A DNA stretch of 64,000 nt from Collybiopsis luxurians FD-317 M1. Lineage: Eukaryota; Basidiomycota; Agaricomycetes; Agaricales; Omphalotaceae. The DNA is taken from contig KN834749.1 in the NCBI GenBank assembly GCA_000827265.1, forward strand, positions 2,159,500 to 2,223,499. Reading direction: 5' to 3'. Positions 19,521 to 22,627 of the stretch are shown here, piece after piece (the first letter of the stretch is position 1; each line of letters starts with the position of its first letter). Position numbers and translations under genes: made by a program. The notes beneath the pieces are model-generated. The model was not told the DNA's origin. It saw only the letters and a program-made list of their open reading frames with translations, and did no database searches.

Positions 19521-20142
19521 ATGGAGATGGGTTCAAGCTCGACGACGACGAACATGACCATGATGATGAAGAACTATCTTCACTTCACTGGGGGCGACAG
19601 TCTCCTATTCCAATCCTGGCATCCAAATTCGTCTGGTGCCCTAGCGGGGGCATGCATTGGTCTCGTAATCGTCGCTCTCCTTGAGCGATGGTTGTTTGCT
19701 ATTCGAGCAGGTTTGGAATCATATTGGTCCCACAAGTAACTATGCGTTTTTTCTACCGATTGATCGATCTTGAAGCTCAGTCTCGCAGGGCTCTTGCATT
19801 GGACTTGCCGAATGCTTCGTCCGCAACAGAAAAATCTTGCGATGACTCTGCAAGCGCCAATTCCAATTCTCCCCAAGTAGTTCGGAAATCCCGGATTGCT
19901 CCACCATTTGTTGCAGCTCACGATGTTCCTCGCGGTGTTATCCATGCCATTCAGGCGCTACTAGGATACATTCTCATGTTAGCTGTCATGTGAGAGTTGT
20001 GGCTCAATTCCTCTCTGCATTCTGATGATATATTCCTGTTTCCAGGACATTCCAAGCGGCGTATGTGATTTCGATTATTTTGGGCTTGGGAATTGGCGAG
20101 ATCCTATTTGGAAGAATGAATTATCGTAGCTTGGTGCATTGA
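19521..20142 (+). CDS. CTR-family copper transporter
   Basis: Three exons (19521-19710, 19776-19989, 20046-20142) encode about 166 residues. The N-terminus is Met-rich (MEMGSSSTTTNMTMMMKNY), as in extracellular copper-binding Mets motifs. TM1 is LAGACIGLVIVALLERWLFA. After a cytosolic loop follows TM2 with the M-X3-M copper filter (LMLAVMTFQ), then TM3 with the Gly-rich packing motif GLGIGEILFG. CTR proteins are trimeric Cu(I) importers at the plasma membrane or vacuole. The C-terminus (MNYRSLVH) lacks a Cys-His-Cys tail. The gene lies immediately upstream of two X325/Bim1-like copper proteins on the same strand. Confidence 0.92.
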
Positions 20143-20256
20143 AGATTACATTGAAACTACGTCCTATAATGAATTTGATCTTACGAATTTTCCCTTTCAG
20201 TTAGAATACAGCCCCAAGGCGTTCCGAACAATAACACCCAAAGGTCATGTCATTTA

Positions 20257-20372
20257 GACGCGTCGTTGTTGAGTTCGATCACTTCCACATTTGGGAGACG
20301 CCGCCGACGGAAAAAAATTTTATCCCATGCGAATAAAACATTTTATTTCGTGCATATAGGGCGCTATAAAAG
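20257..20372 (+). promoter_or_regulatory. promoter of X325-like gene 1: GACGCGTC palindrome, A/T block, TATA box
   Basis: In order: GACGCGTCGTT (20257-20267), GACGCCGCC (from 20297), GGAAAAAAATTTT (20309-20321) and TATAAAAG (20365-20372). The same elements recur in the same order upstream of the second X325-like gene, which suggests a shared regulator. Confidence 0.6.
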
Positions 20373-20421
20373 ATCTCATGAGAAGCAACGGGTCCTTAGG
20401 CTTGTACCCTGGAAGTTCAGT

Positions 20422-21204
20422 ATGCATTCATTCACTGCCTTGCTTCTCACTGGACTCTTCGTTGCTGCCAGTGCGCATTTTCAGCTTCAGTTTCCTCCTC
20501 CTCGAGGCGCCTTCAATGAACCTGCAGAGGTCAACTTTTGTGGTAAGTTTCAACGCGTGTCCATGGCTTAGGAATGTCTTGCTAATTACAATATCCAGAT
20601 GGTTACAACAGCGTCGCGTCAAACAGAACTGCATTCCCAATGAGTAATGGACTTATATCGTTCAACTCAGAACACCCACAGTGGACTGGTGAGCGATTGC
20701 GTCTGACCCACCTTCGTCCTAGGCTTTTTACTCATGTCCACATCCAGCTACTGTGTTCGTGTCGAACTTATCCAACCCCACATCTTTCGACAATTTTACT
20801 CAAATCTTCCCCTTCTTCCAAGAGTCCATCGAGGGCTCCTTCTGCATGCCTTTTGATCTGTCTCAAACTAATGATACAAGCCTTAACTTGAAAAACGGAG
20901 ACAATGTTACTTTACAAGTACATCACTCACGTTCATCCTTTGTACATATCTGACAGTTTTTCTCACTTAGATCCTTTTCAACGGGGGAGATGGAAACTTG
21001 TTCCAGGTACGACCTAGATTCATGTTCATGAGATTAAAAATGTTCATCTAGCTACTACCATAGTGTGCTGACCTTACTTTGGACAACTCGGCAAATGTCA
21101 CTGGTCAAACTTGCACTAATGCGACATCTGCAGCCTTGGGACTGTCGGCGCCTGGAGCTGGGTCGTTACTAGGATTAGCGGGCCTCGCATTTTCTCTACT
21201 TTAA
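20422..21204 (+). CDS. X325/Bim1-like secreted copper-binding protein, copy 1
   Basis: Five exons (20422-20542, 20599-20688, 20748-20917, 20971-21006, 21064-21204). A signal peptide (MHSFTALLLTGLFVAASA) ends just before a His, so the mature protein would begin HFQLQFPPPRG. An N-terminal His after cleavage is the hallmark of the LPMO-like X325 family and Cryptococcus Bim1, where His1, a later His and an Asp bind copper. A His in SEHPQWT is a candidate second ligand. Four Cys could form two disulfides; several N-X-S/T sites are present; the C-terminus is a hydrophobic GPI-anchor signal (GAGSLLGLAGLAFSLL). These proteins are not oxidative enzymes; Bim1 helps copper import together with CTR. Position next to a CTR gene supports that role. 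Confidence 0.87.
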
Positions 21205-21696
21205 ATCTGTTACGACTGCCCCAAAAATAACGAATTTTCTTTACGAATACATGTCTCAAAATTTATAGTAAGAAAGGAATAAGTGCCAGCAAGTATACGA
21301 TTCGAAGCATATTTTCGGCTAAGAATTCATTACTAGATTGTCCGTGTAGTCTTCTGTGTCCTACAGTAAAAATTACCAAGTCCAGACTTTGAGCTGTGAC
21401 ACGGATTCACGCAAACTATGCATACCGCTTTACTTATTTCTGCTCTCGGGCCGTACCCATTGTAATGCTCGGATCAATCTTGTATTTTCTTATCTGATTG
21501 TCTTCGTCCAAACCCAATGCCGTTCCTACACCTTGATTCTGCAGTATACGGACTTGAGGTCCATCAAGCCCATGGACCGAATCTACCCTTCTTGGCAGAA
21601 GAACGATTTCGCAATCAACATATTTCACCAACGTATCATATAAACTTTAAAGCATGCGGGTAAAGTCGCTTGGCTCTCTTGGTAAATCTCAGGATT
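21205..21696. other. spacer between the two X325-like genes
   Basis: This holds the 3' flank of copy 1 and the distal promoter of copy 2. A 95-codon ORF at 21356-21643 has no recognisable features and is not supported. Confidence 0.45.
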
Positions 21697-21792
21697 GACG
21701 CGTCGTTTCACCATCCTGACGCGCCACCGATGAGGAAAAAAAATTTTGTCGCTCCTCAAAAACTTTTTATCTCCTGCCTCGCACTATAAAAG
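21697..21792 (+). promoter_or_regulatory. promoter of X325-like gene 2, same elements as copy 1
   Basis: GACGCGTCGTT (21697-21707), GACGCGCC (from 21718), GGAAAAAAAATTTT (21734-21747) and TATAAAAG (21785-21792) match the copy 1 promoter in order, with slightly shorter spacing. Confidence 0.6.
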
Positions 21793-21838
21793 GTATTTGC
21801 AGAAAGGAACAAGCCAGAGCAGCATCTTCACTCACACG

Positions 21839-22627
21839 ATGCGTTTGGTCACCACCTTGATTCTCTTCGGACTTCTGGCTTTCGCCGATGCACATTTCCG
21901 CCTCCAATTTCCTCCCCCCAGAGGTGTTTTTGTTGAAGATCAAGAGCCAAACTTTTGCGGTGAGCTTCAGTGCGGAAGAATATTAGAACATAACCTGATT
22001 AATCAGATCATAGATGGATATACTACGGCTGCTTCGAACAGGACTTCGTTCCCGTTGACTGGAGGACTAATCTCCCTCACTTCCAGTCACCCACAGTGGA
22101 CCGGTAGGCGATTGACCAGACTCTGAGTGGCGCCAAATTTACTTTTTAATCTTAGCCGCTGTGCTAATCTCAAATGCGTCCAACCCTACCTCCTTTGACA
22201 ACTTTACCCAAATCACACCTTTCTTCCAGGAGAACCTGGAGGGTTCTTTTTGTATGCATATCGATTTGTCTTCGTCTAATGCAACAAACTTGAACCTACA
22301 AAGCGGAGATAATGTTACCATACAGGTACCTTGACCACTTATCGCATTTAGTAAAAACTAATATGTTCTAGTTCCTATTCAACGGAGGCGATGGAAACTT
22401 GTACCAGGTGCGTCTGTTACAAGTTCGGAGATGACTGGCAAAAAAGTGAATGATTCGTATCGCAGTGTGCAGATCTAACTTTGGATAACTCGGTCAACTT
22501 GTCCAACCAGAGCTGCACCAACGGGACTTCGACTTCCTCGTCAGGAACCAGGGCTCTGGGACTGTCTAGCGCAAGCATTACTGGGTCTTTGCTTGGATTG
22601 GCCGGGATTGCGTTTACACTCCTGTAA
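21839..22627 (+). CDS. X325/Bim1-like secreted copper-binding protein, copy 2
   Basis: Five exons (21839-21959, 22014-22103, 22156-22325, 22372-22407, 22466-22627). The first four coding exons have exactly the same lengths as in copy 1 (121, 90, 170 and 36 nt), and the intron phases agree. The signal peptide MRLVTTLILFGLLAFADA precedes mature HFRLQFPPPRG. Other shared blocks are ASNRT, HPQWT, NPTSFDNFTQI, FLFNGGDGNLYQ and CADLTLDNS; the C-terminus is again a GPI-type signal (ITGSLLGLAGIAFTLL). The pair is a tandem duplication. Both copies look intact, so dosage or divergence may have been selected. Function as for copy 1. Confidence 0.87.

What the first reader, a model, noticed from the sequence alone, without database searches (positions are those of the whole stretch)
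19521..22627. Compact copper locus: CTR importer next to two X325/Bim1-like copper proteins
Within 3.1 kb, on one strand, lie a CTR copper transporter (Met-rich N-terminus, M-X3-M filter, GxxxG packing) and two secreted proteins whose mature N-terminus would be His, with a HPQWT His and a GPI signal. In Cryptococcus, Bim1 (X325 family) assists Ctr1-dependent copper uptake (established). Physical linkage of the two functions here suggests a co-regulated copper-acquisition unit in a mushroom-forming fungus. I am not aware of this linkage being described.
Basis: partly seen in the sequence, partly recalled or inferred. Interest (0 to 1): 0.75.

Follow-up and report, generated by a model that had tools for sequence, protein, structure and literature searches.

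The report
Copper importer beside its copper-capture proteins
In the mushroom Collybiopsis luxurians a copper importer gene sits next to two genes for probable surface copper-capturing proteins, and the same neighbourhood seems to recur in many other mushroom-forming fungi, which suggests an old, jointly inherited copper-uptake unit.

Summary
In 3.1 kb on the + strand lie a CTR copper importer (170 aa, Pfam Ctr 6.9e-37) and two tandem X325/BIM1-like proteins (185 and 192 aa; 4.8e-29, 9.7e-31). The spliced models equal deposited Collybiopsis luxurians proteins. Mature N-terminal His, second His, Asp and four Cys are present; the fold predicted for one copy matches LaX325.

The linkage is not local. 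Of 35 species in both capped homologue lists, 28 have CTR and BIM1 on contigs of identical length (1-2 expected), in five orders. In all four species with positional tags in both lists the tags are consecutive or one apart. This was inferred from listings, not from reading the relatives' DNA.

Novelty needs trimming: in Aspergillus fumigatus a GPI protein, a CTR and a metalloreductase were reported adjacent and jointly responsive to neutrophils in 2008; the GPI protein is probably a BIM1 homologue (inference). Eight searches listed no report for mushrooms; two founding papers are not held.

Co-regulation is unproven: the CTR promoter shares nothing with the BIM1 promoters beyond chance, and no TGCTCA occurs. 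Best reading: BIM1 captures copper at the surface and CTR imports it.

The parts
19521..20142 (+). CTR-family copper transporter gene, exons 19521-19735, 19789-19989, 20046-20142 (170 aa; GYMLUDRAFT_33410)
   Evidence: Ctr 6.9e-37; identical to P0121; MxxxM 135-139 and GxxxG 152-156 invariant in 40 aligned homologues
20422..21204 (+). X325/BIM1-like gene 1, exons 20422-20542, 20599-20688, 20748-20917, 20971-21006, 21064-21204 (185 aa; GYMLUDRAFT_33412)
   Evidence: PF20238 4.8e-29; 6ibh 4.9e-27; identical to P0007
21839..22627 (+). X325/BIM1-like gene 2, exons 21839-21959, 22014-22103, 22156-22325, 22372-22407, 22466-22627 (192 aa; GYMLUDRAFT_33414); 67% identical to gene 1
   Evidence: PF20238 9.7e-31; identical to P0001; AF2 model matches 6ibh_A, E 2.6e-14, TMt 0.82
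20143..20421 (+). 279-bp spacer with the presumed BIM1-1 promoter: palindrome GACGCGTC at 20257, GGAAAAAAATTTT, TATAAAA about 57 bp before the ATG
   Evidence: shares 11 9-mers with the BIM1-2 spacer (1.9 expected, 0 of 300 shuffles) but no excess of 7-mers (122 of 300); nothing beyond chance with the CTR upstream stretch
21205..21838 (+). 634-bp spacer with the presumed BIM1-2 promoter: GACGCGTC at 21697, GGAAAAAAAATTTT, TATAAAA about 54 bp before the ATG
19183..19520 (.). about 338-bp stretch upstream of CTR, shared with a divergent rhodanese-domain gene on the - strand (its start placed by eye)
   Evidence: Rhodanese 2.2e-12 in window:18662-18901:-; no TGCTCA and nothing shared with the BIM1 promoters beyond chance

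Best explanation
The locus is a compact copper-uptake module. The two BIM1-like proteins are secreted, cut before His19 and probably held by a GPI anchor at the cell surface, where a His-His-Asp site binds Cu(II). They concentrate copper next to the plasma membrane and release it, after reduction by a metalloreductase encoded elsewhere, to the CTR encoded next door, which imports Cu(I). Shown here: the families, the conserved ligand residues, the predicted fold of BIM1-2, purifying selection on the BIM1 pair and same-contig linkage in many relatives. Inferred by homology: surface anchoring, Cu binding, hand-off to CTR and induction by copper starvation. In Agaricales the ancestral locus probably held two different BIM1 types; C. 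luxurians holds two copies of one type.
For: Family and residue evidence. Linkage: 28 of 35 species have CTR and BIM1 on contigs of identical length; 1.0-2.0 expected for genomes of 60-30 Mb, and none of 200,000 simulated draws exceeded 10; identical lengths across different species 0 of 10,063 comparisons. Positional tags: C. confluens D9757_006315/006316, H. grisea HGRIS_007649/007648, A. citrinella EUX98_g7169/g7168, M. oreades E1B28_001305/001303, the only four species with such tags in both lists. Short shared contigs: C. nuda 32 kb, A. citrinella 36 kb, L. mollusca 51 kb, H. aurantiaca 76 kb. CTR tree: the C11 paralogue plus six Mycena sequences form a separate clade (SH-aLRT 99) and all 28 linked CTRs lie outside it. 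dN/dS of the BIM1 pair well under 1 (NG86 0.21/3.0; YN00 0.24/1.26). Function in relatives: Cryptococcus Cbi1/Bim1 works in copper uptake through Ctr1 (PMC9258870, listing abstract and passages); P. destructans CTR1a, CTR1b and two of three BIM1 homologues rise in Cu withholding (PMC12113139, abstract and passages).
Against: No shared cis-element between CTR and the BIM1 genes beyond chance and no TGCTCA site. No PF08030 metalloreductase match in the window, unlike the A. fumigatus triplet. Seven of 35 species show no shared contig; only one of these, M. galericulata, is explained by paralogy. P. destructans CTR and BIM1 homologues bear distant locus tags. In A. fumigatus the members of the triplet do not all follow copper alike: ctrA2 falls in high Cu, whereas Afu6g02820 is among genes raised in wild type over an aceA mutant in high Cu (PMC8425704, passages). 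No expression data for this locus. Contig sharing was inferred from equal contig lengths; in 21 of 28 species the shared contig exceeds 400 kb. Both trees are quick ones with many weak branches (22 of 49 and 25 of 57 open).
Confidence: 0.75

Rival explanations
1. The genes stay together by gene-order inertia or shared open chromatin; the proteins work in the same metal economy but have no dedicated partnership.
For: No shared promoter words between CTR and BIM1; flanking genes with a Pfam match look like housekeeping genes (TFIID subunit, bromodomain, WD40, KH, RWD).
Against: Same-contig linkage in five orders, including divergent Russulales and Boletales; C11-type CTRs show no shared contig with BIM1 in the two species that bear on it (C. 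luxurians, M. galericulata); a GPI-CTR neighbourhood also stands in A. fumigatus.
Confidence: 0.2
2. The X325 proteins mainly serve cell-wall maintenance or extracellular copper supply to cuproenzymes (laccases, LPMOs) and not CTR import; linkage reflects a common copper signal only.
For: Cbi1/Bim1 is suggested to act also in cell-wall chitin/chitosan integrity (PMC13208438, passages); X325 proteins are among the major secreted proteins of Crucibulum laeve on all media tested (PMC11766592, passages), which fits a released rather than anchored protein.
Against: Specific linkage with an importer; a GPI-like hydrophobic tail in both copies and in 109 of 120 homologues by a simple rule.
Confidence: 0.2
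3. The linkage is a chance or annotation artefact of this genome.
For: None found.
Against: Exact match to deposited models; 28 of 35 species against 1-2 expected.
Confidence: 0.01

Closest known systems
Aspergillus fumigatus Afu6g02800 (GPI protein) - Afu6g02810 (CTR) - Afu6g02820 (metalloreductase), PMC2481287
   Same: A GPI-protein gene adjacent to a CTR gene; all three higher in fungus exposed to normal than to CGD neutrophils (passages). The GPI protein is probably BIM1-like: PMC13208438 lists consecutive accessions XP_747797.1 and XP_747796.1 as A. fumigatus homologues of a BIM1 protein and of CTR1a (passages; my inference).
   Different: Has a metalloreductase in the cluster and one GPI protein; here no reductase found and two BIM1 copies. 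The response described was to neutrophils, not copper.
Cryptococcus neoformans Cbi1/Bim1 with Ctr1
   Same: Same protein families; copper capture feeding Ctr1 (PMC9258870, listing abstract and passages).
   Different: I recall the genes as unlinked and BIM1 as single there (no call shows it); experimentally tested, unlike this locus.
LaX325 (Laetisaria arvalis, PDB 6ibh)
   Same: Fold and mature His start; the two His, Asp and four Cys described for X325 (PMC11766592, passages) are all present.
   Different: About 37% identical; genomic context of LaX325 not examined.
Fusarium oxysporum Mac1 clusters (ctr3/fre9, fre12/ctr1b, fre10/FOXG_02393), PMC11563359
   Same: CTR genes clustered with copper-uptake partners under one copper regulator (passages).
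   Different: Partners are metalloreductases or uncharacterised; the word Bim1 does not occur in the main text; TGCTCA sites there, none here.

Membership tests
CTR copper transporter | Pfam Ctr profile over its whole length | tested here: met
   PF04145 6.9e-37, profile positions 2-151 of 151
CTR copper transporter | MxxxM in TM2 and GxxxG in TM3 | tested here: met
   M135/M139 and G152/G156, invariant in 40 of 40 aligned
CTR copper transporter | Met-rich extracellular N-terminus, three TM helices | tested here: inconclusive
   Six Met in the first 16 residues; 19-residue hydropathy peaks at 43-61, 118-136 and 133-151, 15-residue peaks only at 40-54 and 146-160; no TM predictor
CTR copper transporter | Cu(I) transport | not testable with these tools
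   Needs complementation of a yeast ctr1 ctr3 mutant
X325/BIM1 | PF20238 profile and LPMO-like fold | tested here: met
   4.8e-29 and 9.7e-31; AF2 model of BIM1-2 matches 6ibh_A, E 2.6e-14, TMt 0.82; BIM1-1 was not modelled
X325/BIM1 | N-terminal His of the mature protein, second His, Asp ligand in GGDGN, four Cys | tested here: met
   H19, H66, D134, C40, C103, C140, C156 invariant in 60 of 60 aligned, present in both window copies
X325/BIM1 | Signal peptide cleaved directly before the His | tested here: inconclusive
   A-x-A before HF and alignment to LaX325 residue 1; no predictor or protein sequencing
X325/BIM1 | GPI anchor | tested here: inconclusive
   Hydrophobic C-terminal tail after small residues; no GPI predictor
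X325/BIM1 | Cu(II) binding, no polysaccharide cleavage | not testable with these tools
   Needs purified protein
Co-regulated copper-uptake gene cluster | Conserved physical linkage | tested here: met
   28 of 35 species on contigs of identical length; positional tags consecutive or one apart in 4 of 4 species that carry them in both lists
Co-regulated copper-uptake gene cluster | Shared promoter element: TGCTCA site or common 7-9-base words in CTR and BIM1 promoters | tested here: not met
   No TGCTCA; CTR shares no words with BIM1 promoters beyond shuffles. A degenerate or unknown basidiomycete element is not excluded
Co-regulated copper-uptake gene cluster | Common transcript response to copper | not testable with these tools
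   No expression data

The most novel reading that the evidence does not exclude
Agaricomycetes carry an ancient, dedicated copper-import unit in which one CTR clade is genetically bound to X325/BIM1 partners, often two distinct BIM1 types side by side, while another CTR clade works without them. The unit shares ancestry with the GPI-CTR-metalloreductase triplet of Aspergillus, so CTR-BIM1 partnership would be an old Dikarya feature and partner specificity could be read from gene order.
Probability: 0.35. Interest if true: 0.6.

Novelty: new member of a known kind. Interest (0 to 1): 0.45.

Why it matters
The role of X325 proteins in mushrooms is largely open: they look like LPMOs but are reported to show no polysaccharide-cutting activity. 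Wide linkage to one CTR clade points to copper import as a main job and gives a test: BIM1-linked CTRs should depend on X325 partners and unlinked ones should not. It also bears on copper supply to laccases and LPMOs in wood and litter decay (inference).

Tried and rejected
Chance linkage: rejected. Short anonymous metagenome contigs carrying both proteins: four equal-length pairs, but offsets of -1 and +1 base give three each, so not used. Metalloreductase in the cluster, as in Aspergillus: PF08030 has no match in the window. Mac1-type TGCTCA or another shared promoter element between CTR and BIM1: none beyond chance. FOXG_07771 of the Fusarium ctr3/fre9 cluster as a BIM1: it is listed as a SAM-domain protein. 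NCBIfam gave no match for any of the three proteins. A genome-wide search for the composite BIM1 promoter element did not complete. Other CTR splice models (first attempts failed on a wrong start base; one search listed 12) were discarded for the 170-aa one, which equals the deposited protein.
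Full report
What is there. The window encodes proteins identical to those of Collybiopsis luxurians FD-317 M1 (Agaricales, Omphalotaceae). At 19521-22627 on the + strand lie three genes head to tail: a CTR copper transporter (3 exons, 170 aa), BIM1-1 (5 exons, 185 aa) and BIM1-2 (5 exons, 192 aa), with 279 and 634 bp between coding regions. The spliced translations equal the deposited proteins GYMLUDRAFT_33410, 33412 and 33414, listed as hypothetical proteins.

Families. Pfam gives Ctr 6.9e-37 and BIM1-like 4.8e-29 and 9.7e-31. In CTR, M135-x3-M139 and G152-x3-G156 are invariant in an alignment of 40 of the 173 listed homologues. 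In BIM1, A18-H19-F20, H66, D134 and four Cys are invariant in an alignment of 60 of the 120 listed homologues, and H19 aligns with residue 1 of the crystallised LaX325 chain. Over all 120 rows a simple small-x-small-HF pattern is found in 104. The AlphaFold2 model of BIM1-2 (mean pLDDT 83.4) matches 6ibh_A with E 2.6e-14 and TMt 0.82; bacterial LPMOs follow at 5e-05 and weaker. A C-terminal hydrophobic tail is present in both copies and in 109 of 120 homologues by a simple hydropathy rule. Cleavage before the His and the GPI anchor remain inferences, since no predictor was available.

Two copies. BIM1-1 and BIM1-2 are 67% identical, have the same intron positions and differ mainly at silent sites, which are near saturation (dN/dS 0.21/3.0 by NG86, 0.24/1.26 by YN00), so both appear to be kept functional. 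In a quick tree of 52 of the 120 rows (22 of 49 inner branches weak) both fall outside a 16-row clade (SH-aLRT 98) that holds the second BIM1 type. BIM1-1 pairs with the C. confluens protein (SH-aLRT 91) and BIM1-2 does not, so the duplication is probably older than the split of these species. Six other species (Collybia nuda, Laccaria amethystina, Lyophyllum atratum, Tricholomella constricta, Galerina marginata, Crucibulum laeve) have one copy of each type on contigs of identical length. In Tricholomella the tags are 005202 and 005204. The two C. laeve X325 proteins named in PMC11766592 have consecutive accessions. Against this, the two types in Agrocybe pediades are listed on contigs of different length (two differently named records, perhaps two assemblies), and the two Hymenopellis radicata copies, both of the second type, are on different contigs. 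On balance the ancestral Agaricales locus probably held two BIM1 types. C. luxurians showed no copy of the second type (E up to 10; only six candidates were scored, so a diverged copy could be missed).

Linkage in relatives. I had no genome collection of fungal relatives to search, so I used organism names, contig lengths and locus tags of protein hits from three capped lists (120 of 150, 120 of 135 and 120 of 193 hits shown). From I used the 100 named rows of 120 (86 species). For CTR I used the 79 named rows of 120 and the 32 named of 53 new rows (105 species together). Anonymous rows were set aside. Thirty-five species are in both; 28 have CTR and BIM1 on contigs of identical length, against 1.0-2.0 expected for genomes of 60-30 Mb and at most 10 in 200,000 draws. 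Identical lengths across different species: 0 of 10,063. The 28 include Agaricales, Russulales, Polyporales, Boletales and Amylocorticiales (one representative of each checked; the rest placed from memory). The four species with positional tags in both lists have consecutive or next-but-one tags (C. confluens, H. grisea, A. citrinella, M. oreades). Seven shared contigs are under 400 kb, the smallest 32 kb; 21 are larger. Against: seven species (L. edodes, L. raphanica, L. psammicola, M. galericulata, R. compacta, S. commune, Termitomyces T112) show different contigs. Some of these rows stand for several sequences, so their 'longest contig' need not come from one assembly. The anonymous short contigs gave no usable signal.

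Paralogue control. The genome has two further Ctr loci, on C11 and C15, neither with a BIM1 match. In a quick CTR tree of 60 rows (25 of 57 inner branches weak) the C11 protein and six Mycena sequences form a separate clade (SH-aLRT 99); all 28 linked CTRs lie outside it. The unlinked M. galericulata CTR lies inside it, so this exception is a paralogue. Only these two species bear on that clade, and the CTR rows were found by similarity to linked CTRs, so the other clade is under-sampled.

Surroundings. Of 20 hand-picked reading frames scanned on both sides, the left flank gave a rhodanese domain (divergent from CTR), a TFIID subunit, bromodomains, a WD40 repeat and a zinc finger; the right flank gave KH and RWD domains and a RING-like stretch below Pfam's cut-offs; 10 gave nothing. 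No PF08030 reductase domain was found in the window; nine matches lie elsewhere in the genome. Three copper-fist matches, the domain of copper regulators, exist in the genome.

Regulation. The two BIM1 promoters share GACGCGTCGTT, an A-tract and a TATA box at similar distances (9-mers 11 against 1.9 expected, 0 of 300 shuffles; 8-mers 18 against 6.6, 2 of 300; 7-mers no excess, 122 of 300), which descent from one gene can explain. GACGCGTC occurs four times in the window (3163, 20257, 21697, 48823). The CTR promoter shares no more with either than shuffles do. No TGCTCA, the core of the Fusarium Mac1 site (PMC11563359, passages), occurs in any of the three. Co-regulation is therefore neither shown nor excluded. 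The genome-wide search for the BIM1 element did not complete.

Literature. Cbi1/Bim1 of Cryptococcus acts in copper uptake through Ctr1 (PMC9258870, listing abstract and passages). In P. destructans CTR1a, CTR1b and two of three BIM1 homologues rise under copper withholding (PMC12113139, abstract and passages); their locus tags are far apart, but BLP2 (VC83_03095) is next in number to a metalloreductase (VC83_03096). In A. fumigatus Afu6g02800 (GPI), 02810 (CTR) and 02820 (metalloreductase) are adjacent, rose together in fungus exposed to normal against CGD neutrophils, and were deleted together, giving sensitivity to menadione but no growth loss on low iron (PMC2481287, passages; I saw no copper assay). 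Later work has ctrA2 falling in high copper, while Afu6g02820 is among the genes raised in wild type over an aceA mutant in high copper (PMC8425704, passages), so the three need not follow copper alike. That 02800 is a BIM1 homologue is my inference from consecutive accessions in PMC13208438 (passages). Eight searches, on X325/Bim1, ctrA2 and Afu6g028xx, Cbi1/Ctr1, BIM1-like/copper acquisition factor, LPMO-like/adjacent, X325/synteny, Afu6g02800/LPMO and DUF6595/PF20238, listed no title or abstract reporting the linkage in mushrooms. I saw only listings, abstracts and passages, and the two founding papers are not held, so absence from print is not established.

Verdict. A real CTR-BIM1 neighbourhood of known families, by listing evidence conserved across Agaricomycetes, best read as a copper-uptake module; regulatory and biochemical evidence is missing.

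Noticed in passing
window 18662-19182 (- strand): A rhodanese-domain gene is divergently arranged with CTR over about 338 bp; its N-terminus looks mitochondrial by eye. Not tested whether it shares regulation.
   Followed up: partly
L003 (G000 C11:741204-744413): A second CTR of 235 aa with a Met-rich stretch and no BIM1 match nearby groups with Mycena sequences in a separate clade.
   Followed up: partly
L001 (G000 C15:525300-528518): A third CTR with a His/Met-rich N-terminus, possibly a vacuolar Ctr2-type transporter (recalled resemblance).
   Followed up: no
window 20257 and 21697: Palindrome GACGCGTC at similar distance before both BIM1 genes, followed by GACGC and an A7-8 T4 tract; a candidate regulatory element. 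The palindrome also occurs at 3163 and 48823, without the A-tract, which is found only at the two BIM1 sites.
   Followed up: partly
window 2420-2505 (- strand): ARAGORN reports tRNA-Tyr with anticodon ATA, unusual for a eukaryote and perhaps a miscall from running bacterial settings on an intron-bearing gene.
   Followed up: no
window contig (G000 C1): G000 C1 is 3,415,885 bases, but the contig listed for the identical deposited proteins is 3,435,311 bases, so the held assembly and the listed record differ slightly.
   Followed up: no
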